64,000 bases of DNA from Anaerolineae bacterium (lineage in GTDB: Bacteria; Chloroflexota; Anaerolineae; Aggregatilineales; Phototrophicaceae): the NCBI GenBank assembly GCA_022824365.1, contig JAJEAA010000020.1, positions 62,001 to 126,000 of the forward strand, in the 5' to 3' direction. Under the pieces are notes generated by a model. That model worked only from the letters and a program-made list of their open reading frames with translations, did not search any database and was not told the DNA's origin. Positions within the stretch are counted from its first letter, which is position 1. The number at the start of each line of letters is the position of its first letter. Both the position numbers and the translations under genes were made by a program. Below, in pieces: positions 3,873 to 19,997 of this stretch.

Positions 3873-4640
3873 ATGAAACTCATCTACCTGGTCTCAGGAC
3901 CAATGGGGCGAACGCCCGAAGGAAAAGCCGAACTGGGACGCCGCCGCGAATACTTGCAGCGCTGCGCCGCGCCCGGCACCGAAGTCGATATCACCGATAT
4001 CCCGGCCGGCCCTGGCTCCATCGAGAGCATGTACGAAGAATATCTCTCCATCCCGGAGACGGTGAAGCGGGCGCACGAACTGCAAGCCGATGGCTGGGAC
4101 GGCATCTTGCTCGGCTGCTACGGCGATCCGGGCTTGGGCGCCCTGCGCGAGATCGTCGATATCCCGGTGGTCGGCGCCGGGCAAGCCACCGCGCTGATGG
4201 CTTCGGCCGTCGGGCGACGCTACTCGGTCATCACCGTCACCGACAGCGTCATCGGGCCGATGGAGGAACAGTTGCGCAGTACCGGCGGCGGCGAAAAGCT
4301 GGCCAGCGTGCGCGCGGTCAATATCCCCGTGCTGGAATTGCATCGCGATCGCGAGGCTGCCATCGAGATCACGCTGGAAGAGGGCAAGAAAGCCATCGAG
4401 GAAGACCGCGCCGATACCCTCATCGTCGGCTGCATGAGCATGGGTTTCCTCGAGATTCCGGAAGCCTGCCAAGCCGAGCTCGGCGTGCCCTTCTTGAACC
4501 CGGCGCGGGTGCAACTCAAATTCCTGGAAGCCATGCTCGGCTCCGGCCTCAGCCATTCGAAACTGGCTTACATGACGCCGCCCAAGATCGCCTCCGGCCA
4601 AGCCTCATCGCCGGCGGATTTGTATCACCGCCGGAATTGA
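3873..4640 (+). CDS. Aspartate/glutamate/hydantoin racemase family protein
   Basis: A 255-residue cytosolic protein of the cofactor-independent racemase superfamily. The two catalytic cysteines are present in the expected half-site contexts: G-C-Y-G-D-P-G-L (Cys82) and G-C-M-S-M-G-F-L (Cys187). The pattern G-C-x-x-D-P in the first half and loss of the N-terminal T-P-x-T signature resemble hydantoin racemases more than glutamate racemase. It lies 12 bases before a membrane-protein gene and downstream of a peptidase, so a role in epimerising amino acids or hydantoins from degraded material is plausible. Substrate is not determinable. Confidence 0.88.
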   Translation: MKLIYLVSGPMGRTPEGKAELGRRREYLQRCAAPGTEVDITDIPAGPGSIESMYEEYLSIPETVKRAHELQADGWDGILLGCYGDPGLGALREIVDIPVVGAGQATALMASAVGRRYSVITVTDSVIGPMEEQLRSTGGGEKLASVRAVNIPVLELHRDREAAIEITLEEGKKAIEEDRADTLIVGCMSMGFLEIPEACQAELGVPFLNPARVQLKFLEAMLGSGLSHSKLAYMTPPKIASGQASSPADLYHRRN

Positions 4641-4652
4641 GTTGACAAATAC

Positions 4653-6326
4653 ATGCAAAACGCTGCGCCTGCCGTCATTTCCAGCGGTCTCATTTACTTT
4701 TCCCTGTTCCTTGTCTATCTCACGGTCAGTCTGCTCGCCTTTCGATATTTGCTGCCGGGCTTGAGCGCGGTTGCCAACAGACTCGCCATGTTTATGCTGA
4801 TTGCGCAGATAGCGCTCGTTGGCTTGTCTCTGTTCCTCAGACCGGCTTCCGCATACGAGCAGTGGCTATGGGATATGGATCGCGAGCACAATCTCATTTC
4901 CGCTCTGGCCGCGTCGCAGTTCGCGCTCGTCGGCTGTTTTGCATTGCTTGCTGCCTGGTTCAGTCCACGCCCAGCCTGGCGACGCATTTACTTTGCGGGT
5001 ATCGGTATTTTGTTCCTGGCGCTTTCCTGGGACGAATATCACAGCTTCCGCTCGGTTCATGGGAACTGGCAGATATATTATGTCTCGCTTGGGTTGGTGG
5101 TGGCCTCCGCCACTGTGCTTGTCGCGCTCCGTTCCCCGCGGCGCGTATGGAAGTGGTTCTTCTGTTTTCTGTCAGGCTTGGCGATAAGCGCGCTTGGCGC
5201 ATTGATTCTGGATATCGTGCCTTGCAACGGCGAGATTATATACCTGGCGGGGACTTGGCGGGTCGACAAGGACGCATGCATATTACTCAAACATATTGAA
5301 GAAACCCTGGAATTAATCGGCATCTGGCTCGCCTTAGTTGCTGCCGGCGGTCTTGCGACCATTGCGCGCGCGGGAAAGGGGATTCCCCGAATCATGTATT
5401 TGGTCCCGCCGCTGTCAATTCTGGTGTTATTGCTGCACTTCCTGCCGCCTCTGCTTGAGCTCCGACTAATGACTCAAGAAGCTAGCATAGGTTTCGAGAC
5501 GGGGATAAACTTACAGGCATTCCGCGTGGACATGAGCCCAAGGCGGCTGGATACCACTTTATTTGTTTCGTCTACGAATTGGCATAAGTTTACTGGAAAG
5601 GGATATTCTATCCATTTAGTTGACCTTGTCAGCGGCGAATCGATAGCGCATACGGACGATAGCGCGTCCCGTCGCGAAGGGTGGCGCACTGCCCTGTATG
5701 TTCCAGGCGTTAATTACATACAGCGGATTTCAGTTGACATCCCGGCTGACGCGCCCGCCAACCGCGCCATGCAGGCGGTGCTCACAGTTTGGAGTGAGAA
5801 CAATGGCGCATTCATCCGCCAAAAGGTCACGTCAAGCGACCTGCCGCTCCTGAGCGACACACAGGTAATTTTGAAGGAATTCGTCTTGACAGAGCCAATC
5901 TCTTCGGATTCGACTCCGCTGGCTGCCTTTGAAAATGGCTTCGCGCTGGCTTCCGCTCGCTTGCCGGAAAGCGCCAAAGCCGGCGATACCATTGACATCA
6001 TGTTTTTCTGGTCCAGCGACAAAGAAGGGCTTGAGGACACAATACAGTTTCTTCACTTTAGTCACGAAGAAAGCGGCGAATGGTGGGGCTATGATCAGCG
6101 TCCTCTCGGACCCCGCCTGCCTACGCGGCTATGGTACAGCGGCTTGTCCGATAGCGAGCTCTGGCAGGCGCCGCAGCCGGACAATTTGCCAGCGGGCAGT
6201 TATGCGGTATTCACCGGTCTGTACGATCCGCGCGACGGCGAGCGTGTGCCTGTGCACGACGCGAACGGCGAGCCATTTCTTGATGCGCGTGTGCCGCTTG
6301 GCATCGTAGTTTTCCAAGCCGCCTGA
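4653..6326 (+). CDS. 8-TM membrane protein with C-terminal beta-sandwich-like module (paralogue A)
   Basis: A 557-residue integral membrane protein of unknown function, one of four paralogues here. About eight hydrophobic segments fill residues 1-270. Shared motifs are W-L-W-D-M-D-R-E-H-N after TM2, L-S-W-D-E-Y at the end of TM4, and E-E-T-L-E-L-I-G-I-W-L in TM7. The C-terminal ~280 residues form a soluble module with W-W-G-Y-D-Q, G-P-R-L-P-T-R-L-W-Y-S-G and a terminal G-L-Y-D-P-R-D-G-E-R-V-P-V. I have met such a C-terminal module in Chloroflexota membrane glycosyltransferase-like proteins (from memory), but no transferase motif is seen here. The gene lies 12 bases after the racemase and has no clear ribosome site. 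Copy A lacks the near-identical C-terminal DNA shared by copies C and D. Confidence 0.85.
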   Translation: MQNAAPAVISSGLIYFSLFLVYLTVSLLAFRYLLPGLSAVANRLAMFMLIAQIALVGLSLFLRPASAYEQWLWDMDREHNLISALAASQFALVGCFALLAAWFSPRPAWRRIYFAGIGILFLALSWDEYHSFRSVHGNWQIYYVSLGLVVASATVLVALRSPRRVWKWFFCFLSGLAISALGALILDIVPCNGEIIYLAGTWRVDKDACILLKHIEETLELIGIWLALVAAGGLATIARAGKGIPRIMYLVPPLSILVLLLHFLPPLLELRLMTQEASIGFETGINLQAFRVDMSPRRLDTTLFVSSTNWHKFTGKGYSIHLVDLVSGESIAHTDDSASRREGWRTALYVPGVNYIQRISVDIPADAPANRAMQAVLTVWSENNGAFIRQKVTSSDLPLLSDTQVILKEFVLTEPISSDSTPLAAFENGFALASARLPESAKAGDTIDIMFFWSSDKEGLEDTIQFLHFSHEESGEWWGYDQRPLGPRLPTRLWYSGLSDSELWQAPQPDNLPAGSYAVFTGLYDPRDGERVPVHDANGEPFLDARVPLGIVVFQAA

Positions 6327-6410: not shown

Positions 6411-7619
6411 ATGGGATACGTACTCACAGGAGCGACGTTGATCGATGGCAACGGCGGCGAGCCAGTTGCCAACTCAGCCGTATACGTTAAGGGCGAGCGC
6501 ATCGCCTGGGCTGGCGGCGCCGCTGATTTGCCGGCGGCGGCGGGTGACGCCAAGCAGATTGACGTCAGCGGCAAATGGCTGATGCCCGGCTTGATCGACG
6601 CCCACATCCACATCTGCTACAATGGCTCGGAGAGCGTCTTCGCCCTGCTGGAAAAGCATCGTGACGACCTGGTTCTGGAAGCGGTTGATATCTGCAAGCG
6701 CACGCTCTCGCACGGCGTCACTACGATCCGTGATGTCGGCGGCGAGAAGTACATCGAAATGTCGCTGCGGGACGCCATCAACCGCGGCTTCATCGACGGT
6801 CCGCGCATGAAACTCTCAGGCCGCGTCATTTCCATGACCGGCGGCCACGCTCACTTCATCGCCCGCGAAGCCGATGGTCCCGATGAGATGCGCAAGGCGG
6901 CTCGCGAGCAGATCAAAGCTGGCGCCGACTTGGTGAAGCTCATGGCCACCGGCGGCAGCGCCACGCCTGGCCAAGATATCCACGCCAGCCAACTGACGGT
7001 GGAAGAGATCGCGGCTGTCTGCGAGGTGGCGCACATGTTGGGGCGCGTAGTGGCGGCGCATTGCCATGGCACCGGCGGCATCCGCAATTGCATGCTCGGC
7101 GGCGTCGACACGATCGAACATGGCACCTATCTCGATGACGAGACCGCCGACATGATGGTGGAGAACGGCGCATCGCTGGTATTGACGCTTGGCGCCGGCA
7201 ATCCCGATTTGGAGAGCTATCCGCTCTCGCCGGTGCAGCAGGCCGATGCCGAGCGGCGCAAACCGATGATCGAGCAGGGCGTCAAGCAGATCCGCAAGAC
7301 GATTGCCCTGGCGCGCGCCAAAGGTATCTTCCTGGGCATCGGCACAGACGCTGGCGGCAATCCCTTGGCGCCGCACAACTTTAGCATGGCGCGGGAACTT
7401 GAATTGCTGGTCGAAAACGATCTGACGGCGCTGGAAGCGATCACTATCGGCACGCGCAATAATGCGAAGATTCTGCGCTGGGACGACGAGATCGGCACGG
7501 TCGAAGCGGACAAGTATGCCGATCTGCTGCTCCTGGACGCCGATCCCCTGGTCGATATTCGCAACCTGCGCCAAATCGCCGCGGTCTTCAAAGGCGGGGA
7601 AAAGGTTCATTCAGCCTAA
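6411..7619 (+). CDS. Metal-dependent amidohydrolase (Xaa-Pro dipeptidase/imidazolonepropionase-like)
   Basis: A 402-residue amidohydrolase-superfamily enzyme with the complete binuclear site: D-A-H-I-H (His65, His67), a carboxylated-lysine candidate in L-V-K-L-M (Lys176), A-A-H-C-H-G (His217), I-E-H-G-T (His237) and G-T-D-A-G-G (Asp313). The N- and C-terminal beta-sandwich of the superfamily is recognisable (G-A-T-L-I-D-G, and A-D-L-L-L-L-D-A-D-P near the end). This branch includes enzymes cleaving prolyl dipeptides and N-acyl amino acids. The start has a strong AAAGGAGG site 8 bases upstream. The stop abuts the next ATG (TAAATG), so the two are probably co-translated. Confidence 0.9.
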   Translation: MGYVLTGATLIDGNGGEPVANSAVYVKGERIAWAGGAADLPAAAGDAKQIDVSGKWLMPGLIDAHIHICYNGSESVFALLEKHRDDLVLEAVDICKRTLSHGVTTIRDVGGEKYIEMSLRDAINRGFIDGPRMKLSGRVISMTGGHAHFIAREADGPDEMRKAAREQIKAGADLVKLMATGGSATPGQDIHASQLTVEEIAAVCEVAHMLGRVVAAHCHGTGGIRNCMLGGVDTIEHGTYLDDETADMMVENGASLVLTLGAGNPDLESYPLSPVQQADAERRKPMIEQGVKQIRKTIALARAKGIFLGIGTDAGGNPLAPHNFSMARELELLVENDLTALEAITIGTRNNAKILRWDDEIGTVEADKYADLLLLDADPLVDIRNLRQIAAVFKGGEKVHSA

Positions 7620-8711
7620 ATGCCAACGATAGCGATGGTCGGGGACATCTTCCTGCAAGAGCCGCTGCCGCCGACGGCGGAATTGGCTGGCGTCCGCCAG
7701 GTCCTGCGCGGCGCTGATATCGCCTTCGGCAATCTGGAGACGCCGGTCTCCACGCGTGGCGCGCCTGTCGAAAAGTGGATCAACATGCGCATGAAGCCTG
7801 AATTGCTGGCTGATGTTCAAGACTTGGGATTTGACATCGTGACGCTGGCGAACAATCACATGATGGACTTCGGCGAGCTCGCCTTCTTTGATACGCTGGC
7901 GCACTTGCGGGAGCGGGAGTTGCCACACGTCGGCGCTGGCGCTGATCTTGACGCAGCCTGGCGCGCGGAAGTGCTCAGCCTGGGCGATACAAGCGTGGCT
8001 TTCCTGGGCGCAGCGTCAACTTTGGGCGTGCAATCCGCCGCGACCGCCGATCGCCCCGGCATCGCGCCGATACATGTATCGGAATCGTACAATATCGATT
8101 TCGCCGGCAGCATGGAGCAGCCGGGCAGCGCTCCTTACGTCTTCACCCGCGCCTGGCGCGAAGACCTCGACCGCGCCGTCGCCGCCATTGAAGCAGCGCG
8201 GGGGGCGGCTGATTTTGTCGTCTTGGCGCTGCATTGGGGCGTGCCGCCCTTCTGGCGCTCCCGTTTTCAAGACGGTTTGGCCGATTATCAGATCGAAGTC
8301 GGCCAGGCGCTGATCGACGCCGGCGCCGATGTCATCGTGGGCCATCATCCACATTCGCTGCAGGAAGTGGAAATCTATCGCGGTAAGCCGATATTCTACA
8401 GCTTGGGCAATTTTGTCTTTCATCACAATCAGGGACCGGTCAGCCATACGCCGATCAGCCGCAACGCGCCCTATGCCGTCAGTGTTGATCGGCGCAACCG
8501 CAATTGGTCGGAGACGGTCATCGTCTTCGCTGACATCAGCGCGGACGGCGCAGCGACATATTCGCTTCAGCCGGCCCTGCTGGACGCTGCCGGCAATCCG
8601 CAATTGCTGCATGGCGCTGAAGCGCAGGCGCTCATCAAACGGCTGGATGACTTGTCGCCAAATGCGCGTATTAGCTGCCGTGATGGGCTGGGTCATTTGC
8701 AATTGGACTAG
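7620..8711 (+). CDS. CapA family (poly-gamma-glutamate synthesis-type) calcineurin-like phosphoesterase fold protein
   Basis: A 363-residue member of the CapA/PgsA family of metallophosphoesterase-fold proteins. The characteristic motifs are V-G-D-I-F-L at the N terminus, G-N-L-E-T-P-V, L-A-N-N-H-M-M-D-F-G, L-H-W-G-V-P and V-G-H-H-P-H-S-L-Q, then the Y-S-L-G-N-F-V-F strand. No signal peptide or TM anchor is visible, unlike classical CapA, which suggests a cytosolic hydrolase. It starts at the base after the amidohydrolase stop. CapA relatives are often annotated for capsule export, but here the neighbourhood is amide and peptide catabolism. Confidence 0.88.
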   Translation: MPTIAMVGDIFLQEPLPPTAELAGVRQVLRGADIAFGNLETPVSTRGAPVEKWINMRMKPELLADVQDLGFDIVTLANNHMMDFGELAFFDTLAHLRERELPHVGAGADLDAAWRAEVLSLGDTSVAFLGAASTLGVQSAATADRPGIAPIHVSESYNIDFAGSMEQPGSAPYVFTRAWREDLDRAVAAIEAARGAADFVVLALHWGVPPFWRSRFQDGLADYQIEVGQALIDAGADVIVGHHPHSLQEVEIYRGKPIFYSLGNFVFHHNQGPVSHTPISRNAPYAVSVDRRNRNWSETVIVFADISADGAATYSLQPALLDAAGNPQLLHGAEAQALIKRLDDLSPNARISCRDGLGHLQLD

Positions 8712-8848: not shown

Positions 8849-10552
8849 ATGAGCAGAAAACTTGTAAGTGTAGTTGTTCTGTTGCTGATGCTTCTGGTAT
8901 TTGCCATACCAGCCGCGTCGCAGACGGCGGGCGAAGCTGTGCCGGCGATTATCGTGCGCTCGGTCACACAGGCGGAACGCCCGATCGAGTTTGAAACCAC
9001 CCGCCTGGTCGTGGAAAATATGCGCCAACTGGGTTTGGAAGTGGAGCATCGCGCCGTCCCCTGGGCGCAGTTGATTGACGAAATTTGGTACACGCGCACC
9101 GGCGATGAAGCTTGGGAAATGACCTACTGGCGTATGGTGGGCCGGCCCGAACGTTCGGATCCGGATGAATTCACCTACAACCTTTTCCATTCCAGCGTTC
9201 GCGATGGCGGCTATAACTTCATCGGCTACAACAACCCCGATTATGACGCCCTGGCTGAAGCCCAGCGGGTGGAAGTGGCCGATAAGGAAGCGCGCCTGGA
9301 CATCATCTGCGAGGCGCAGCAGATCATCCGCAACGATATGGTCAACGCCTATTTCGTTCATCCGCTGACCCCGCAGGTCGTGAACACAGAAGTCTTTAAT
9401 GCCGACAGCGTCGTCACGCAAGCCGGCATCGGCGTACACAACTTCTGGACCTGGATCGGCATCGAGCCGACCGGCGACAATAAGGACTTGGTGACGTCGA
9501 CGACCTCCTTCCTGAATTCCTTCAACCCCTTGGAGATCGCCGGCGACGCGCCCAGCCGCGTGACGGAAATGACCTGGGACCGCCTGATGCGCATCAACCC
9601 CATCGGCGTGGCCGAGCCTTGGGCGGCTGAGAGCGTCGTCTGGGAAGACCCGTTAAACGTGGTCGTCACCCTGCGCGCCGGCATGACCTGGCATGATGGC
9701 GAACCGGTGCAATCCGATGATGCCGCCTACAGCTTTGAAGCGGCGCTGGCTGGCACAACGCAGACCGACGAAGACGGCAATGAATCCTTCCGCGCCGAAG
9801 CGCCGGATTATTACCCCTTCGCCCGCAATGTCGCCAATATCGAGATCATCGACGACCTGTCGCTGCGCTTCACCCTGCATACGCCGTCAGCCGCCTTCGA
9901 GACCAGTTCGCTGGCCAAGCTGAACCTGATTCCCAAGCACATCTGGGAGCCCATCATCAACGACCTGCTGACGAAGGATGACGCCGATGTCGATTCGATC
10001 CAGGAAGATATTCCTATCGGCTCCGGTCCCTTCAAGTACATCGCCTTTGATGTGAACGAGTTCGTCTTGCTCGCGGCATTCGACGATCACTGGGCTCGCC
10101 CCAAGATCGATACTTGGCTGATGAACGTTTTGCCCAACCAGGAAGCGACTCTGGGCCAGATTCAATCCGGCGAGATGAACTTCCTCTGGGAATGGCCCGG
10201 CGACCCCGGCGTGCTGCAGCAAATCGTGGACGACAACGAGCCTCTCGACTTGTTCTCGGCGATCAGCATCGGCTTCCAATACTTCGCCTTCAACGTGCGT
10301 TACGCGCCCTTTGATGACGTGACCTTCCGTCAGGCGATCGCGCATACCATCCCGCAGCAGTTCATCATCGACAACATCTACAACGGTTTCGCCGCGCCAG
10401 CCGACAGCTTCGTTTCGGCCGCGCTCGAATACTGGCGTCAATGTGATGACCTGCCGACCTATGACCAGGGCATTGATGGCGCGCGCGAGCTGCTGGCGGG
10501 CGCGGGCTACACCTGGGACGACGACGGCCGCCTGCACTACCCGGCGGAATAA
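8849..10552 (+). CDS. Peptide ABC transporter substrate-binding protein (SBP_bac_5), apparently circularly permuted
   Basis: A 567-residue exported solute-binding protein. Residues 1-24 are a signal peptide. Residues ~33-205 match what is normally the C-terminal segment of the family: R-L-V-V-E-N-M-R-Q-L-G-L-E-V-E, then D-P-D-E-F ... G-Y-N-N-P-D-Y-D-A-L, then E-A-Q-Q-I-I-R-N-D. Residues ~210-567 match the normal N-terminal and middle part (L-N-S-F-N-P, W-D-R-L-M, G-M-T-W-H-D-G-E-P, G-S-G-P-F-K-Y, F-R-Q-A-I-A-H). The protein ends at A-R-E-L-L-A-G-A-G-Y-T-W-D-D-D-G-R-L, exactly where a standard member would continue into the displaced segment. The other two family members here have normal order. 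An AAAGGAG site precedes the ATG. It heads an operon with two permeases and a fused ATPase. Confidence 0.92.
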   Translation: MSRKLVSVVVLLLMLLVFAIPAASQTAGEAVPAIIVRSVTQAERPIEFETTRLVVENMRQLGLEVEHRAVPWAQLIDEIWYTRTGDEAWEMTYWRMVGRPERSDPDEFTYNLFHSSVRDGGYNFIGYNNPDYDALAEAQRVEVADKEARLDIICEAQQIIRNDMVNAYFVHPLTPQVVNTEVFNADSVVTQAGIGVHNFWTWIGIEPTGDNKDLVTSTTSFLNSFNPLEIAGDAPSRVTEMTWDRLMRINPIGVAEPWAAESVVWEDPLNVVVTLRAGMTWHDGEPVQSDDAAYSFEAALAGTTQTDEDGNESFRAEAPDYYPFARNVANIEIIDDLSLRFTLHTPSAAFETSSLAKLNLIPKHIWEPIINDLLTKDDADVDSIQEDIPIGSGPFKYIAFDVNEFVLLAAFDDHWARPKIDTWLMNVLPNQEATLGQIQSGEMNFLWEWPGDPGVLQQIVDDNEPLDLFSAISIGFQYFAFNVRYAPFDDVTFRQAIAHTIPQQFIIDNIYNGFAAPADSFVSAALEYWRQCDDLPTYDQGIDGARELLAGAGYTWDDDGRLHYPAE

Positions 10553-10655: not shown

Positions 10656-11666
10656 ATGAACCGCGGTATCGCCTATTATATTCTGGGGCGTTTCTTGCAG
10701 AGCGTGATGGTCCTCTGGATCATCGTCACACTGCTCTTCTTGCTCTTTCGCCTGGCGCCGAGCAACCCGCTGGCCAGCTATATCGACACCACTTTCACCA
10801 AAGAGCAGGAGGCGGCGCTGCTGGCTCGCTTCGGCCTCGATAAGCCCCTGGGCGAACAGTACATCATTTATCTTTTTAACCTGGCTCGCTTCGAGCTTGG
10901 CGATACCTTCAGTTATTCCGGCAAGAGCGTGCTGGATATTCTGAGCGCGGACTTGCCCAACACCATCTATTTGACGCTGAGTTCCCTGCTGGTGGCTTAT
11001 GCCGTTGGGGTGCTTGGCGGCATCGCGATGGCGGCGCTGCGCGGCAGCCTCTTCGAACGCGTCGGGACGACCTTCACCCTCATGACGCGGGCCGCGCCTA
11101 CCTTCTGGGTTGGCATGTTGCTGCTGTCCTTCTTTGCCTTTCAGTGGAAACTGTTGCCATCGGCCGGCATCGGACCGGCGGTGGTGCGCTATCGCTGGGA
11201 GACCGAATGGGATAAGCTGATGTCGCCCGTATTTTGGCGTCACATGATCTTGCCGACCTTCACGCTCGCGCTCTATCTGCATGGCTTGCCGCTGCTGCTG
11301 ATGCGCTCGAATATGCTCGAAGTGCTGGACCAGGATTATGTGACGATGAGCCGGCTGGCTGGTTACAGCGAGTGGCGCGTCATGATCCACACCGCCGCCC
11401 GCAACGCCATGCTGCCGGTCTTGACCGCGCTGACGCTGGGCATCGGCTATAGCATCGGCGGCAATGTGGTTATCGAAAATGTGTTTTCCTGGCCCGGGCT
11501 GGGGCGGACGCTGGTGCGGGCGGTCCAGCAAGCCGATTATCCGCTTGCCCAGGGCGCATTTTTTCTCATCGCCCTCATCATCGTATTTATGAATTTCATC
11601 GCTGATATCTTATACAGCCTGCTGGATCCGCGCGTCGGCGCGTCGGCGCAGGCGCAAGTCTCTTGA
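10656..11666 (+). CDS. Peptide ABC transporter permease, DppB type
   Basis: A 336-residue inner-membrane permease with six predicted helices. The first helix (V-L-W-I-I-V-T-L-L-F-L-L-F) is followed by the long periplasmic loop typical of DppB/OppB. The EAA loop appears as S-R-L-A-G-Y-S-E-W-R-V-M-I-H-T-A-A-R-N-A-M-L-P, and the end carries the family F-S-W-P-G-L-G-R and Y-S-L-L-D-P-R-V. An AGGAG site stands 9 bases before the ATG, directly after a palindromic repeat. It is the second gene of the operon that begins with the permuted binding protein. Confidence 0.94.
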   Translation: MNRGIAYYILGRFLQSVMVLWIIVTLLFLLFRLAPSNPLASYIDTTFTKEQEAALLARFGLDKPLGEQYIIYLFNLARFELGDTFSYSGKSVLDILSADLPNTIYLTLSSLLVAYAVGVLGGIAMAALRGSLFERVGTTFTLMTRAAPTFWVGMLLLSFFAFQWKLLPSAGIGPAVVRYRWETEWDKLMSPVFWRHMILPTFTLALYLHGLPLLLMRSNMLEVLDQDYVTMSRLAGYSEWRVMIHTAARNAMLPVLTALTLGIGYSIGGNVVIENVFSWPGLGRTLVRAVQQADYPLAQGAFFLIALIIVFMNFIADILYSLLDPRVGASAQAQVS

Positions 11667-12673: not shown

Positions 12674-14857
12674 ATGTCCATACTTTCCATCCGCGATCTC
12701 AAAGTTGATTACGCCACTCAAGAGGGCACCGTGCAAGCGGTGGACGGCGTCTCGCTTGATGTCGACGAAGGGCAGCAGCTTGGCTTGATCGGCGAATCCG
12801 GCTGCGGCAAAACCACCTTGCTGAAAGCCATCGTTCAGGTGCTGCCGCGCAACGGCCGCATCACCGCCGGCAAGATCATGTTCAATGGCATCGACATGCT
12901 GCAACTGTCCAAAACGGAGATGCGTCAACTGCGCTGGCGTGAAATCGCCACCATTCCGCAAGCCTCGATGGATTCGCTGAATCCGGTGCAGCGCGTCGGC
13001 AGCCAACTGATGAAGCTGCTCCGCGTCCGCGGCGGCTATGACAAGCGAGCGGCTCGCCGCCGCGCGGCCGACCTCTTCGATCTGGTCGGCTTGGATACCG
13101 AGCGCCTGATGCACTACCCGCATGAATTCTCCGGCGGCATGAAGCAGCGCGCGGTCATCGCTATGGCATTGGCGCTGGAGCCTAGCCTGCTGATCGCCGA
13201 CGAGCCCGTCACCGCCCTCGATGTCATCGTGCAGCATCAGATTCTTGAAGTGCTGCGCGAGCTCGAGCAGGAACTCAACCTCACTGTCATGTTGATCACC
13301 CACGATATCTCGGTCGTGGCCCAAGTCTGTGATTCGGTGGCGGTGATGTACGCCGGCCGCATCGTCGAGCAAGCGGCCGCCGAGCCCTTTTTCCATGCCC
13401 CCGCCCATCCCTATAGCCTCGGCTTGCAGCAAGCTTTCCCGAATCTGGCTCGCCCGCGCGATGAACTCGTCTCGATCGAAGGCTACCCGCCCGATCTGCG
13501 CGAACCGCCCTCCGGTTGCCGCTTTGCCGAGCGCTGCCCCTTCGTGCAAGACAGTTGCCATGATATCGATCCCCGGCTCGAGCTCGTCGGCGATAATCGC
13601 CTGGCCGCCTGCCTGCGCTCCGGCGAAATGGAGACGCTGCGCTCCCAAGCGGAAGACCCCGCCCTCTGGCAGCAAGTCGAGGTGGCGCAAGAGCCTATTC
13701 TACCCCCCCCTAAATCCCCCTCCATTACGACGAGGGGGGACTTGGGCGCGCCGCCCCTAGCAACTGCTTCGGTAGAGACGCCCCCCTCTCCATCGCAATG
13801 GGGAGGAGTTGATGATGACATCCTCCTCGAAATGCGCGATGTCTCCAAGCGCTTCAAGATCGGCGGCGGCTTGGCCGGCCTCCTGCGCGGCGACCACGAG
13901 CAGACTGTCTACGCCGTCAACAATATCTCCTTCACGCTGCGGCGGGGCGAAAGCCTCGGCCTGGCCGGCGAAAGCGGTTGCGGTAAATCCACCACCGGCA
14001 AGCTGCTGGTGAAGCTCCTCGATGCCAGCGATGGCGAGATCCTCTTTGACGGCGCCGACCTGGCGCATCTGGAGCAAGACGATCTGCTTAACTTCCGCCG
14101 CCGCTCTCAACTGATGTTTCAGAATCCCTTCGAGGCGCTGAACCCCCGCTTTACCCTTTATCGTTCCTTGACCGAACCGCTGATCATCCACGGCTGGAAA
14201 GATGAGCAGCAGCGCCTGGGACGCGTGATCGAAACCCTCGACCGCGTCAACCTGCGCCCGGCCGAGGTCTTCCTCGATAAATACCCCCACCAACTCTCCG
14301 GCGGACAATTGCAACGCGTCGTGCTGGCGCGGGCTCTTGTGCTCCATCCCGATTTTCTGGTGGCGGACGAACCCGTCTCGATGCTTGATGTCTCCGTGCG
14401 CGCCGGCATCCTCAACACCACGCGCCGTCTCGCCCGCGAGTTGGGCTTGGCCACCGTTTATATCTCGCATGACCTCTCCCTGCTGCAATACACCTGTGAC
14501 CGCATCGCCATCATGTACCTCGGCGAAATTGTCGAAATCGGACCCAGCAGCGGGGTCATTAACAATCCGCAGCATCCCTACACCCAAGCGCTGATCGCCG
14601 CCGTGCCCGTGCCCGACCCGACAATCGAGAATCCGCCCCTGCGCATTCAGGAAGGCATCCCCCGCCCGACCGAGCAATTCATCGGCTGTCCCTTCGCCCA
14701 ACGCTGCCCCGATGTCATGGAAGCCTGCCTGGACATTCGCCCGCCCGCAATCACGGATGAATACAGCCACATGGCCCAATGCCATCTCTATGGCGACCAT
14801 CGTGATTCGCCGAAGCTCAAGCGTGGCGCGGAGGTGACGAGCGGGAATACGCGCTAG
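12674..14857 (+). CDS. Fused peptide ABC transporter ATPase (DppD-DppF in one chain)
   Basis: A 727-residue cytosolic double ATPase that would serve as both nucleotide-binding subunits of the importer. Domain 1 has Walker [10 protein letters not shown] (40-48), signature F-S-G-G-M-K-Q-R and Walker B L-I-A-D-E-P, then the oligo_HPY extension with C-R-F-A-E-R-C-P-F. Domain 2 (from ~380) has [23 protein letters not shown] and a second C-P-F-A-Q-R-C-P extension. The linker at about 341-380 is Pro/Ser-rich and is encoded by palindromic repeat DNA. The gene follows DppC by 10 bases, without a strong ribosome site. Its stop overlaps the next start (TAGTG). Confidence 0.95.
13697..13809. repeat. Palindromic repeat elements inside the ATPase linker
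   Basis: Within the fused ATPase gene, a stretch of C-runs and G-runs (CCCCCCTAAATCCCCCTCC and GAGGGGGGA, then CCCCCTCTCCATCG and CAATGGGGAGG) has the same make-up as the intergenic CCCTCCC/GGGAGGG family. It is translated in frame as a Pro-rich linker containing S-P-S-Q-W-G-G between the two ATPase domains. Confidence 0.7.
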
Positions 14858-16527
14858 TGGACGCCGACGCCTTTCTTCGGCTTGGCTTGCTCGCCCTCTA
14901 TGCGCCGATCGTCCTGTTCAGCTATTGGCGGCTGATCCCGCGCCTCGCCCCCAGCGCAAAACGCCTCGCCTCCGCCATGCTCGCCGCGCAAATCCTGATC
15001 ATCCTCCTGGCTCAATTCACGTCGCAGCCTACCGACTTTGATCGCTGGTTATGGGACTTCCACGAAGAATGGAATATCCCGGCTACCTTCGCCTGCATCC
15101 AACTCGGCCTGGTCGGCGGCGTCGCGCTCCTGACCTCATGGCTGGCGCGCGGCCGTGGGACCTGGCTGCGTCTCTACCTGGTCGGCACGGGCTTGATCTT
15201 CCTCTTTCTCGCTGTTGATGAATACCTCGCCTTGCACGAAGCCGTCCCGGATTGGGAGCTGCGCTATATCTTGCTCGGCGCCGCGCTGGTGCTGGCTACC
15301 GCGCTGGTCGCCCTGCGCTCGTCGCGAAGCTCATGGCTGTGGCATCTTCTTCTGCTTGCCGGTCTCGCGATCAGCGTGGCGGGCGCGATGCTGATCAACG
15401 CCCTGCCCTGCGGCAGCCTGGCTTTTTTGCGCCTTGACGACGGCTGCCTCGAGTTTTACGTGCTGGAAGAATCCTTCGAGTTTCTGGGCATCTGGCTGAC
15501 GCTGCTCGCCGCTCTGGGGCATTTCTCGCTAGAAGCGCCGGCGCCATCGCGACGCGCTCGCGGGCTGCTCTACGCCCTGCCTATCGTCTGCGCTCTTGCG
15601 CTCATCGCCAATGCCCTTGCCCCGCGTATCGAAGCGCGGCTGTTGGCTCAGCCCACAGACGTAGAGTTCAAGGCGGATATTGTGCTGCGCGGCTTCCATA
15701 TCGACCGCGATGCTGACGGCGCTGTTTTGCGCCTCTATGTTTCCGCTCCCCAAGCGGCTTACTTGGGCATCGGCTATTCCATCCATCTCGTCGATCAAGT
15801 CACCGGCGAATCGGTCGCCAGCCGCGATGAATGGGCTGACCGTCAGCACGGCATCTGGCTCCTTGGCGCCGACTTCTCCCCAATCCACCGCCAGTGGATG
15901 GACCTGAATATCCCGCCGGAAGCGCCCGTCAACCGCGCCTACTGGGTCGTCCTCACACTCTGGCGCCGCAAAGAAGGCGAAGAGTTCAAGCGCCAGAAGG
16001 TCTTGGCCAGCGACCTCCAACTGCTTGACGATAGGCAGGTTGTCTTGAGCGAACTGGTTCTGCCGGCTTTGGAGTCTGGCTGGTCTGCCTTTCCCTTGGC
16101 AACATTCGACAATGGATTCGCGCTCGAAGCCGTTGACTTGCCTGACCGGGCTCAACCGGGCGAGACGCTGGCGGTCGCCTTCTCCTGGCGCAGCGCTGCC
16201 GCAGGAACGGACGACTACAGCCAGTTCCTGCACTTCGTTTATGGTTCTCCCCCTGGAGAGGGGGCAGAGTCGGTTGAAACTGGCCACTGGTGGGGCTACG
16301 ATCAATCTCCGCTGGGTCCCCGCCTGCCGACCCGCCTCTGGTATGCCGGCCTCGCCGATAGCGAAACCTGGCGCGTGCCCCTCCCCGCTGATCTGCCGCC
16401 CGGGCCTTACAGCATCTTCACCGGCCTCTACCGCGTCAGCGACCTTGAGCGCGTCCCCGTGGCTGACGCTGACGGCATGCCCTGGCCCGATTATGCCTTG
16501 CCGCTAGGCATGCTTCAGGTAGACTGA
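14857..16527 (+). CDS. 8-TM membrane protein with C-terminal beta-sandwich-like module (paralogue B)
   Basis: A 556-residue member of the four-copy family. The GTG start overlaps the ATPase stop by one base, so translation is probably coupled to the peptide importer. About eight hydrophobic segments occupy residues 1-265, with R-W-L-W-D-F-H-E-E-W-N, L-A-V-D-E-Y-L-A-L-H-E and L-E-E-S-F-E-F-L-G-I-W-L-T-L. The C-terminal module keeps W-W-G-Y-D-Q-S-P-L-G-P-R-L-P-T. It is ten residues longer than the paralogues just before W-W-G-Y-D-Q, where S-P-P-G-E-G-A-E-S is encoded by a palindromic element (16245-16270). Function unknown. Linkage to the importer suggests an envelope role. Confidence 0.85.
   Translation: MDADAFLRLGLLALYAPIVLFSYWRLIPRLAPSAKRLASAMLAAQILIILLAQFTSQPTDFDRWLWDFHEEWNIPATFACIQLGLVGGVALLTSWLARGRGTWLRLYLVGTGLIFLFLAVDEYLALHEAVPDWELRYILLGAALVLATALVALRSSRSSWLWHLLLLAGLAISVAGAMLINALPCGSLAFLRLDDGCLEFYVLEESFEFLGIWLTLLAALGHFSLEAPAPSRRARGLLYALPIVCALALIANALAPRIEARLLAQPTDVEFKADIVLRGFHIDRDADGAVLRLYVSAPQAAYLGIGYSIHLVDQVTGESVASRDEWADRQHGIWLLGADFSPIHRQWMDLNIPPEAPVNRAYWVVLTLWRRKEGEEFKRQKVLASDLQLLDDRQVVLSELVLPALESGWSAFPLATFDNGFALEAVDLPDRAQPGETLAVAFSWRSAAAGTDDYSQFLHFVYGSPPGEGAESVETGHWWGYDQSPLGPRLPTRLWYAGLADSETWRVPLPADLPPGPYSIFTGLYRVSDLERVPVADADGMPWPDYALPLGMLQVD
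16245..16270. repeat. Small palindrome inserted in frame in paralogue B
   Basis: CTCCCCCT, spacer GGAG, AGGGGG: a compact member of the CCCTCCC/GGGAGGG family. The three paralogues lack it at the aligned position (between F-L-H-F/L and W-W-G-Y-D-Q), so it looks like a 30-base in-frame insertion. Confidence 0.75.
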
Positions 16528-16595: not shown

Positions 16596-18278
16596 GTGCA
16601 AGACTTCGTACTGTTCATTCTCAAAGCTGCTTCAAATCAGTTGTTTCTGGCTCTGCTATTCGCCGCCGTGGGCTTGTGGGCATACCGGCGATGTCTGCCG
16701 CGGCTTTTGCCAGGCGCCAGGCTTCTGGCTGCCGTCATGTTTGTGGCTCAAGTCGCGGTTGTCGTGATTGCGATCCGGGTCCGGCCAATACTGAAAGACG
16801 ATTTCGGCGAGTGGCTCTGGAACATGGACCTGGAGTGGAATATCCCCTCTGCGTTTTCCTCGACTCAAATTGTCCTGGTAGGCTGTGTCGCCCTGATCAT
16901 TGCTTGGCGCGTAAGGAGGCATGCCAATTGGCGCCGATGGTATTTTGGCGCTGTCGGATTGATTTTCCTGCTCTTGGCGCTGGACGAGTTCTTCCACCTT
17001 GACGGCAGCCTGCAAAACGCCATCTATGTTCACAGGCGATTATTGTTCTCTCTGTCGGGCGCGGTAGTTCTGATTGCGACATGGGCTGTCGCCGCGCGCG
17101 CGCCGGCGCGAATGCGGCTCTGGCACGCCTGTTTCTTCATCGGCTTCGCCGCGTCTGGCTTCGCCGCCGTCGTCCTGGATTATGCCCGCCCCCTTAGACC
17201 TTGCTTGATGAACAGCGAGTTTCTGCGCTTGATCGGCTGTATATCGCCTTATCTGCTTGAAGAGGCGGTCGAATTCTTGGGCATCTGGCTGGCGCTTGTG
17301 GGCATGCTCGGCTATTTTTCCAGCCTGTCGCCTTCAGTCTCGGCTCAGCGCATTCTGTTTGTCGTCCCCCCCGTTTGGATTCTCTTCCTGTTTGTGAATG
17401 CTCCCTTTCAGCATGTGCCATTGCCAGACTGGGCAAAGCCAGCCTCCGTCCAGTTTGAAGACGGCGCTTATATGCACGGATATTCCCTGGAGGCCGGCGC
17501 GCTTGACGTATCAGCAATTTTGTACTTGCCGTATGGAGATGAGAATTCACGGCCCGGGCTTTCCATACACCTGATTGATCAGGTCAGCGCTGAATCCGTC
17601 GCCCATGCTAATGCTCATGTCAATCGCGACAACAAAGTTTCCCGGCAAAACTACGACTATAGGCCCCTCTACCGGCAGCGAATAAAACTAAAGTTCGAGC
17701 GCCCCGCGCCGGCCAACCGCGCCTTCAGCATCGCGCTAACGCTATGGCGCGAGCAAGATGGCGGATTCGCGCGCGAGCGGATCGTCTCCAGCGACCTTCA
17801 ATTGCTCAGCGACACGCAAGTCATCCTGGGCGAAATGGTCCTGCCCGCAATATCAGCGCCAGCGACCTCGCCGCCATTGGCAGCATTTGACACGGGCTTC
17901 GTCCTTGAGGCGGCGCGCCTGCCTGACCGCGTCATTGCCGGCGATCCGCTGCCGATCACCTTCGCTTGGCGCGCCAACCAGGCGGGTGATGAAGATCACA
18001 TCCAATTCTTGCACCTCGGCCACGGGGAAACGGGCGACTGGCGGGGCTACGATCAATCTCCGCTGGGTCCCCGCCTGCCGACCCGCCTCTGGTATGCCGG
18101 CCTTGCCGATAGCGAAACCTGGCACGTGCCCATCCCCGCTGATCTACCGCCCGGGCGCTACGAAGTCTACACCGGCCTCTATCGCGTCAGCGACCAGGAA
18201 CGTCTCCCGGTGACCGCCGCCGATGGGACGCCCTGGCTCGATAATCGTGTCTCGCTGGGCTTTCTTCATATAGAATAA
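16596..18278 (+). CDS. 8-TM membrane protein with C-terminal beta-sandwich-like module (paralogue C)
   Basis: A 560-residue paralogue with a GTG start, 68 bases after copy B. It has the same architecture: hydrophobic segments over residues 5-275, W-L-W-N-M-D-L-E-W-N after TM2, L-A-L-D-E-F-F-H-L-D-G after TM4 and L-E-E-A-V-E-F-L-G-I-W-L-A-L in TM7. The soluble C-terminal half ends G-L-Y-R-V-S-D-Q-E-R-L-P-V. Its C-terminal DNA (about 17859-18035) is almost identical to copy D (about 19573-19750), and 18048-18120 is almost identical to copy B, while the membrane halves have diverged strongly. The His of the D-E-x3-L-H-E motif is shifted in this copy. Function unknown. Confidence 0.83.
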   Translation: MQDFVLFILKAASNQLFLALLFAAVGLWAYRRCLPRLLPGARLLAAVMFVAQVAVVVIAIRVRPILKDDFGEWLWNMDLEWNIPSAFSSTQIVLVGCVALIIAWRVRRHANWRRWYFGAVGLIFLLLALDEFFHLDGSLQNAIYVHRRLLFSLSGAVVLIATWAVAARAPARMRLWHACFFIGFAASGFAAVVLDYARPLRPCLMNSEFLRLIGCISPYLLEEAVEFLGIWLALVGMLGYFSSLSPSVSAQRILFVVPPVWILFLFVNAPFQHVPLPDWAKPASVQFEDGAYMHGYSLEAGALDVSAILYLPYGDENSRPGLSIHLIDQVSAESVAHANAHVNRDNKVSRQNYDYRPLYRQRIKLKFERPAPANRAFSIALTLWREQDGGFARERIVSSDLQLLSDTQVILGEMVLPAISAPATSPPLAAFDTGFVLEAARLPDRVIAGDPLPITFAWRANQAGDEDHIQFLHLGHGETGDWRGYDQSPLGPRLPTRLWYAGLADSETWHVPIPADLPPGRYEVYTGLYRVSDQERLPVTAADGTPWLDNRVSLGFLHIE

Positions 18279-18326: not shown

Positions 18327-19997
18327 GTGGAAATGGTCATGCCTGAGCTATTTCGCCCGGACGAAGCTCTCGTCCGCCTCGCGCTCATGTTTCCCTATAT
18401 CCCCGTTGGTTTGTTCGCTTTCCGCCGATTGCTGCCCCGCCTGCCGCTATCCAGCAAGCTCCTGGCGATCAGTTTCTTCCTGGCGCAGGCGCTGATGATT
18501 GGGCTGTCGCTGGTGATCCGCCCGGCCTCCCCCTTTGAAATCTGGTTCTGGGATCTTAACCTGGAATGGAACTTGCTCACCGGTATCGCTTCGGCGCAGT
18601 TGATCCTTGTTGCCGGCATCGCTCTATACGTATCCTGGATCAGCCCAAGCAGCCTGAATCTAAATCGACTTTATTTCCTCGGCGTAGCTTCGCTTTTCTT
18701 GTTCATTGCGCTGGATGAGACCTTCGCCATTCACGAAAATTACCGATTTCTTGAAGTGATCTATTCATTGCTCGCGCCGATATTGGTGGCGGCTTCAGTG
18801 CTTGTGCAGGCAAAGTCGCCAAGAAGATTTCGTATCTGGCGCGTTACGCTTGTGACCGGTCTTTTAATAGCCGGACTCGCTGAAATCGGGCTGGAGCAGT
18901 TACAGCACATACGCATTTGCGGCAGCGTGGGATCCATTACTCTAACCGAATGCCTGAAACCTTATTACCTGGAGGAACCGCTCGGATTCTTGGGAATTTG
19001 GCTGACGCTTGTCGCTGTCTTGGGTCATCTGTCCGAAGCGCAGGGCAGTTCATATTCTCGCGTTCTGCCCCTAGCGCTGGCTATACTGGCGCTCTGGTCC
19101 GCTATTCTCTACCAGACATCGCCAGTTCACGACGCGCATCCTCCTGAGTGGGCGACGCCGGCATCCGTCATCTCCGAATCGGGACCGGAAATTGTCGGCT
19201 ACCAACTCAATACGAATGAGCAGCATACTGCCTTCATAGTTTACTTTCCCGCCGGTCTTGCGCTATCCGAACAGGGCTATTCAGTTCACATGATCGACAT
19301 GGCAACCCAAAACTCCGTAGTAAGTCATAACGCGCATTTCAATAAGAGACACAAAGTCTCTCTGAAAAAGCACGATTTCAAACCTCTTTACCAACAGACC
19401 CCCGAAATCGCCATGCCATTGGACCTGCCCGCCAACCGCGCTTTCAGGATCGTGCTCACATTTTGGCGCGAGCGAGATGGCGAATTTCAGCGGGACAAGA
19501 TTCTCTCAAGCGACCTTCCCTTGCTGGACGAGTGGCAAATTATCCTGGGTGAATCGGTCCAGCCCGCGGTATCAACCCCTGCGACCTCGCCGCCATTGGC
19601 AGCATTTGACACGGGCTTTGCCCTCGAAGCGGCGAACCTGCCCGACCGCGCTATTGCCGGCGATCCGCTGCCGATCACTTTTGCCTGGCGCGCCAACGAG
19701 GCGGGTGATGAAGATCACATCCAATTCCTGCACCTCGGCCACGCGGAAACGGGCGAGTGGTGGGTCTATGATCAGCCGCCCCTCGGTTCGCGCCTGCCGA
19801 CCCGCCTCTGGTACACCGGCCTTGCCGATAGCGAAGCCTGGCAAGCGCCCATCCCCGCTGATCTCGCCCCCGGACGCTACGCCGTCTTCACCGGCCTGTA
19901 TCGCGCCAGCGACCGGGAACGCGTCCCGGTGAGCGATGCCGCCGGAAAGCCCTGGCTCGACAATCGCGTCGCGCTAGGCAGTATAATTATCGAGTGA
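18327..19997 (+). CDS. 8-TM membrane protein with C-terminal beta-sandwich-like module (paralogue D)
   Basis: The third tandem paralogue, 556 residues. Possible starts are the GTG given or in-frame ATGs at 18333 and 18339. Membrane half: hydrophobic segments at 15-270 with I-W-F-W-D-L-N-L-E-W-N, I-A-L-D-E-T-F-A-I-H-E and L-E-E-P-L-G-F-L-G-I-W-L-T-L. The C-terminal half has R-A-N-E-A-G-D-E-D-H-I-Q-F-L-H and W-W-V-Y-D-Q-P-P-L-G, ending G-L-Y-R-A-S-D-R-E-R-V-P-V. The acidic pair E-E before G-I-W-L is kept in all four copies, as is the D-E after TM4. No catalytic family could be assigned. Confidence 0.83.
   Translation: MEMVMPELFRPDEALVRLALMFPYIPVGLFAFRRLLPRLPLSSKLLAISFFLAQALMIGLSLVIRPASPFEIWFWDLNLEWNLLTGIASAQLILVAGIALYVSWISPSSLNLNRLYFLGVASLFLFIALDETFAIHENYRFLEVIYSLLAPILVAASVLVQAKSPRRFRIWRVTLVTGLLIAGLAEIGLEQLQHIRICGSVGSITLTECLKPYYLEEPLGFLGIWLTLVAVLGHLSEAQGSSYSRVLPLALAILALWSAILYQTSPVHDAHPPEWATPASVISESGPEIVGYQLNTNEQHTAFIVYFPAGLALSEQGYSVHMIDMATQNSVVSHNAHFNKRHKVSLKKHDFKPLYQQTPEIAMPLDLPANRAFRIVLTFWRERDGEFQRDKILSSDLPLLDEWQIILGESVQPAVSTPATSPPLAAFDTGFALEAANLPDRAIAGDPLPITFAWRANEAGDEDHIQFLHLGHAETGEWWVYDQPPLGSRLPTRLWYTGLADSEAWQAPIPADLAPGRYAVFTGLYRASDRERVPVSDAAGKPWLDNRVALGSIIIE

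What the first reader, a model, noticed from the sequence alone, without database searches (positions are those of the whole stretch)
8849..10552. Circularly permuted peptide-binding protein
Seen: after a signal peptide, residues ~33-205 align in motif order with the C-terminal segment of SBP_bac_5 proteins (iteration V-V-E-N-M-R-Q-L-G-L-E-V, D-P-D-E-F, G-Y-N-N-P-D-Y-D, E-A-Q-Q-I-I). Residues ~210-567 align with the usual N-terminal and middle parts and stop at the exact point (E-L-L-A-G-A-G-Y-T-W-D-D-D) where that segment normally follows. The two other SBP_bac_5 proteins in the window (32.4 and 58.3 kb) have normal order. Known: in this fold both termini lie in the same lobe, so permutation is structurally possible. 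Inference: it arose by tandem duplication and loss of outer halves, and is functional because it heads an intact importer operon.
Basis: partly seen in the sequence, partly recalled or inferred. Interest (0 to 1): 0.88.

Follow-up and report, generated by a model that had tools for sequence, protein, structure and literature searches.

The report
Circularly permuted peptide-type import binding protein
This bacterial nutrient-capture protein is built from the same parts as its common relatives but with the two ends of the chain moved to a new place, and related sequences indicate that nature made such a rearrangement at least three separate times in this one protein family, once in a transporter whose sister species still carry the ordinary version.

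Summary
Window 8849-10552 encodes a 567-aa SBP_bac_5 (family-5, "cluster C") protein. Residues ~42-189 match the normal C-terminal part of the fold and ~213-560 the normal N-terminal and middle parts, leaving no large gap or overlap. It is not an assembly artefact: 61 retrieved ORFs (some duplicate retrievals) share the order, from Chloroflexota, Bacillota and Alphaproteobacteria, and it also occurs on complete plasmids of cultured bacteria and haloarchaea. Importer genes stay linked and both segments are under purifying selection. A third permutation, in one genus, has normal-order relatives (~53-64% identical in both halves) at the same operon position in sister genomes. A tree from the segment contiguous in all forms supports three independent origins. 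Most likely a working importer binding protein; cargo inferred as peptides or other amides. Permuted binding proteins of other clusters are known; I found none reported for family 5. Binding is untested, and the 3D check covers only residues 204-567.

The parts
8849..10552 (+). circularly permuted SBP_bac_5 substrate-binding protein, 567 aa (type A)
8849..8923 (+). signal-peptide-like N-terminus (residues 1-25, boundary by eye)
   Evidence: hydrophobic stretch; variable in homologues
8942..9463 (+). residues 32-205: segment that is C-terminal in normal family members
   Evidence: residues 42-189 = HMM 362-500; PF00496 294-364
9464..10549 (+). residues 206-567: segment that is N-terminal and middle in normal family members
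   Evidence: residues 213-560 = HMM 33-352; PF00496 3-284; 1xoc Z 23.7
10656..11666 (+). DppB/OppB-type permease
   Evidence: PF00528, PF19300
11683..12663 (+). DppC/OppC-type permease
   Evidence: PF00528, PF12911
12674..14857 (+). fused two-domain ABC ATPase (DppD-DppF type)
   Evidence: two PF00005 and two oligo_HPY stretches; NCBIfam
3873..4640 (+). Asp/Glu/hydantoin racemase family protein, linked to the importer across phyla
   Evidence: PF01177; linkage
6411..7619 (+). amidohydrolase (closest NCBIfam: Xaa-Pro dipeptidase, below its cut-off)
   Evidence: PF01979; NF051886 287.9 bits against 500
7620..8711 (+). PGA_cap / MslH-like metallophosphoesterase-type protein
   Evidence: PF09587, NF038314 below cut-off

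Best explanation
The gene encodes a functional, naturally circularly permuted substrate-binding protein of the family-5 (Opp/Dpp/Nik) type. In an ancestor the original C-terminus was joined to the mature N-terminus, and new termini opened in the surface loop after the AGY-x(n)-GRLxYP motif (AppA residues ~345-372). The chain most likely folds into the usual two-lobed clamp, captures a small amide-type solute (peptide, N-acyl amino acid or hydantoin-like cyclic amide) and delivers it to the adjacent permeases and ATPase. The family (type A) arose once and spread widely. The same fold was permuted independently at least twice more: type B, with termini early in the fold (DppA residues ~95-125), common in Chloroflexota; and type C, at nearly the same loop as A, in one genus. 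Shown: segment order, its conservation, one clade per type, purifying selection (type A), operon linkage. Inferred: the fold of the N-terminal segment, binding, transport, substrate class, and the duplication route.
For: Complementary HMM segments and the rotation test. Same order at 45-97% identity in Anaerolineae, Halanaerobiales, Limnochordia and a Rhodobacteraceae MAG; ~29% in Limnochordia paralogues; further genomes; complete plasmids of Nitratireductor, Ketogulonicigenium, Roseomonas, Maritalea and haloarchaea. Operon with permeases and ATPases, often with a racemase or epimerase and amide-bond hydrolases. dN/dS 0.02-0.22 in both segments. Type B. Type C against normal-order relatives in the same syntenic slot. 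Tree from the segment contiguous in all forms: A, B and C each one clade at SH-aLRT 99; A+C as one clade rejected, AU p 0.0024.
Against: No experiment. The AF2 model is weak at residues 97-123 and 510-514, and sequence-ordered structural alignment reports only residues 204-567. The trees are quick searches on 221-227 columns with many weak deep forks. Substrate class rests on gene neighbourhood only, and one operon (Maritalea) lacks the enzyme set.
Confidence: 0.9

Rival explanations
1. The swapped order is an assembly artefact or a chance fusion of fragments of two neighbouring SBP genes, without function.
For: The window comes from a multi-contig genome (37 contigs); SBP_bac_5 genes are abundant there (38 genes) and could recombine or misassemble.
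Against: The same order and break occur in independent MAGs and complete plasmids of cultured strains from several phyla; one intact ORF with its own signal peptide; dN/dS well below 1 in both segments.
Confidence: 0.01
2. The first ~175 residues are not the missing lobe segment but a separate added domain, and the protein is a family-5 SBP that lost its C-terminal third.
For: Pfam alone gives the N-terminal segment only E 0.0066; no order-independent 3D comparison was possible.
Against: The own-genome HMM matches the segment at 9e-23 to exactly the missing positions 362-500; independent genes give PF00496 287-365 at down to 6.9e-10; AppA 372-495 aligns at 1.1e-10; type C shows ~60% identity of the corresponding segment to normal-order relatives.
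Confidence: 0.03
3. It is permuted and folded but is no longer an importer subunit: it acts as a sensor or chaperone-like receptor (as some SBPs do).
For: No transport or binding data; type B in the own genome is convergent with, not upstream of, its nearest permease pair.
Against: Type A is followed by or linked to both permeases and ATPases in nearly every locus read, across Bacteria and Archaea; type C replaces the normal SBP at the head of the same operon.
Confidence: 0.06

Closest known systems
AppA / OppA / DppA (SBP_bac_5, PF00496; cluster C SBPs)
   Same: Same family by sequence over both segments, signal-peptide-like N-terminus, same type of permease and ATPase partners.
   Different: Chain order is permuted: the normal C-terminal third comes first.
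TpMglB-2 (Tp0684), 'cluster Bc' glucose-binding protein (PMC4990184)
   Same: A naturally circularly permuted ABC binding protein, conserved across several taxa and shown to bind its ligand.
   Different: Cluster B fold with another breakpoint; not a family-5 protein.
Glycine betaine- and molybdate-binding proteins and CysB (CPSARST, PMC2395249)
   Same: Circular permutation relations among solute-binding folds.
   Different: Other SBP classes, under 24% identity to each other, found by structure comparison.

Membership tests
SBP_bac_5 (PF00496) extracellular solute-binding proteins | Score over the Pfam gathering cut-off | tested here: met
   189.1 bits against 32.4
SBP_bac_5 (PF00496) extracellular solute-binding proteins | All segments of the family present | tested here: met
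   HMM 33-352 plus 362-500 of 516
SBP_bac_5 (PF00496) extracellular solute-binding proteins | Canonical linear order of segments | tested here: not met
   Order swapped; hence filed as a permuted variant, not a canonical member
SBP_bac_5 (PF00496) extracellular solute-binding proteins | Exported protein | tested here: inconclusive
   Hydrophobic N-terminus read by eye; some homologues look like lipoproteins; no predictor run
SBP_bac_5 (PF00496) extracellular solute-binding proteins | Encoded with Opp/Dpp-type permeases and ATPases | tested here: met
SBP_bac_5 (PF00496) extracellular solute-binding proteins | Two-lobed, three-domain fold | tested here: inconclusive
   AF2 pLDDT 76, pTM 0.72; residues 204-567 match 1xoc at Z 23.7, rmsd 5.5 over 327 residues; N-terminal segment not comparable with these tools
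SBP_bac_5 (PF00496) extracellular solute-binding proteins | Ligand binding | not testable with these tools
   needs experiment
Cluster Bc (TpMglB-2-like) permuted SBPs | Cluster B sugar-binding family | tested here: not met
   The only Pfam family matched at E up to 10 is SBP_bac_5

The most novel reading that the evidence does not exclude
Family-5 binding proteins are permuted repeatedly because moving the termini is adaptive: it shifts the membrane tether or a fused partner to another lobe and so changes how the clamp opens, docks on the permease or takes on a second binding domain. Consistent facts: two independent events at nearly the same loop, lipoprotein-like N-termini (by eye) among all three types, and two type B proteins fused behind a second, unrelated binding domain.
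Probability: 0.15. Interest if true: 0.85.

Novelty: new variant of a known kind. Interest (0 to 1): 0.72.

Why it matters
Natural circular permutations with close unpermuted counterparts are useful test cases for how permutation arises and what it changes. Here one protein family shows evidence of at least three independent cases, two at nearly the same loop. Type C offers a natural experiment: related genomes, one of them in the same genus group, carry the same importer operon with either a permuted or an ordinary binding protein, ~53-64% identical in each half. The type A proteins with annotation seen here are named simply 'ABC transporter substrate-binding protein', and no matched PDB chain followed the permuted order among the hits shown, so the rearrangement is easy to overlook.

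Tried and rejected
AlphaFold2 of the type B protein gave pLDDT 33 from an 11-sequence alignment and says nothing. Sequence-ordered fold searches report only residues 204-567; an order-independent 3D comparison was not possible without coordinates. The artefact idea was dropped after isolate plasmids appeared. A single origin for A and C was rejected by the AU test. Literature searches found no permuted family-5 binding protein; only open-licence PMC papers were searched. A Pseudomonadota sample showed type A only in the centre genome at E <= 1e-100, although plasmids show more. The type B protein had no match in plasmids at E <= 1e-40. Type B breakpoints were compared with normal relatives without settling whether a duplicated overlap remains. 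A PF00496 survey of 41 genomes was cut off in the listing, so it is no full census; it nevertheless led to type C.

Full report
Observation. Window 8849-10552 (+) is one ORF of 567 aa with a hydrophobic N-terminus. PF00496 covers residues 256-560 as model 3-284, and the first 210 residues alone match model 294-364. With an HMM made from 20 normal-order family members of the same genome, residues 42-189 match positions 362-500 and residues 213-560 match positions 33-352; rotating the chain at ~206 restores one continuous match of 255 bits. A profile of the family shows the same swap against AppA 1xoc. Chance and artefact readings fail: 57 normal ORFs matched in normal order, and 61 ORFs, some of them duplicate retrievals of one gene, share the permuted order with the same break.

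Distribution of type A. Relatives of 45-97% identity occur in Chloroflexota, Halanaerobiales, Limnochordia and a Rhodobacteraceae MAG; ~29% paralogues in Limnochordia keep the same ends. Of 299 genomes sampled from the Limnochordia genome's phylum 7 carry it, two of them already known; of 400 Chloroflexota only 2 at E <= 1e-70; in a Pseudomonadota sample only the centre genome at E <= 1e-100. Plasmids of Nitratireductor, Microvirga, Neorhizobium, Ketogulonicigenium, Roseomonas, Maritalea and several haloarchaea match across the junction; the permuted order was checked directly for Ketogulonicigenium, Nitratireductor, Neorhizobium, Roseomonas, Maritalea and three haloarchaea. Where annotated, the gene is named only 'ABC transporter substrate-binding protein'.

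Context. In the window the SBP is followed by two permeases and a fused ATPase and preceded by a racemase-family protein, an amidohydrolase and a PGA_cap-family protein. Racemase, permeases and ATPases stay linked in Halanaerobiales and Rhodobacteraceae. Alphaproteobacterial plasmids add hydantoinase/oxoprolinase genes; haloarchaea have creatininase, M20, M81, D-aminoacylase or dipeptide epimerase genes nearby. Maritalea has the importer without a comparable hydrolase/racemase set; a gamma-glutamylcyclotransferase-family gene follows it. From this I infer cargo with amide bonds, possibly D-configured or cyclic; no substrate is known.

Selection and structure. dN/dS against four relatives is 0.02-0.22 in both segments; synonymous changes are near saturation in several comparisons, so the values are rough. 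AlphaFold2 on 25 sequences gives pLDDT 76, pTM 0.72, weakest at 97-123; ordered structural alignment places residues 204-567 on AppA 18-358 at Z 23.7, rmsd 5.5 over 327 residues. The N-terminal segment remains untested in 3D.

A second permutant, type B. The same genome encodes a 556-aa family member (C18:184456-186126, minus; L059:1957-3627) with HMM positions 133-490 first and 33-126 last. It is kept in ten further genomes of the genus, and 37 of 301 sampled Chloroflexota have a match to the permuted profile; the eleven newly fetched ones are all permuted. Two of them are followed by DppBC-type permeases; the own-genome copy is convergent with a permease pair.

A third permutant, type C. A Chloroflexota genome (G059) has a gene with HMM positions 359-494 first and 32-349 last, with full-length relatives in two further genomes and a frameshifted one in a fourth, all in one genus group. 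Its nearest normal-order relatives, ~53-64% identical in those read in full, match both halves in swapped order; in the three genomes whose surroundings were read, one of them (G110) in the same genus group, they sit at the same operon position before permeases 73-82% identical. Each permuted genome shows a single match at E <= 1e-60, so no close normal-order copy was seen alongside. The old C-terminus runs into the mature N-terminus with almost no linker (...IMGDRFFRQVSMPNNILRVN... against ...IMGDTSFVNVSIVK-end and ...TPQVFRVN... in the normal form).

Origins. A tree from the middle segment, contiguous in all forms, gives A, B and C each as one clade at SH-aLRT 99, with three changes of order in all. 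Holding A and C together is rejected, AU p 0.0024, with the caveat that the pair was chosen after seeing a tree. Independently of the tree, type C is far closer to normal-order proteins than to type A. These are quick trees on 221-227 columns; deep forks are weak, so the normal-order sister of type A is not settled.

Known and new. Circularly permuted binding proteins are known in cluster B (TpMglB-2, PMC4990184), and permutation relations among betaine- and molybdate-binding proteins and CysB (PMC2395249). No report for family 5 turned up in the open-licence library, and no matched PDB chain followed the permuted order among the hits shown. Hence: a new variant of a known kind. The mechanism of origin (tandem duplication and trimming) remains an inference from general knowledge of circular permutation.

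Noticed in passing
G000:C18:184456-186126 (L059:1957-3627, minus): Second permuted SBP_bac_5 (type B) in the same genome, with another breakpoint; 37 of 301 sampled Chloroflexota have a match.
   Followed up: yes
L193:4989-6719; L172; L173: Type C permuted SBP in a syntenic operon whose sister genomes carry the normal order.
   Followed up: yes
L166:2089-4542 (-) and L161:2655-4988 (-): Type B proteins fused behind an SBP_bac_3 domain (L166) or a Peripla_BP_6 domain (L161; its ORF reaches the contig end), both followed by permease genes.
   Followed up: partly
L171:1238-2943: Type C copy that changes reading frame near residue 75 although 98% identical to its relative: pseudogene or sequencing error.
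   Followed up: no
window 4653-6326, 14857-16527, 16596-18278, 18327-19997: Four ~556-aa membrane-like proteins with similar C-terminal parts around the importer; the first has no Pfam match.
   Followed up: no
G000 (whole genome): About 38 SBP_bac_5 genes in 4.2 Mb.
   Followed up: no
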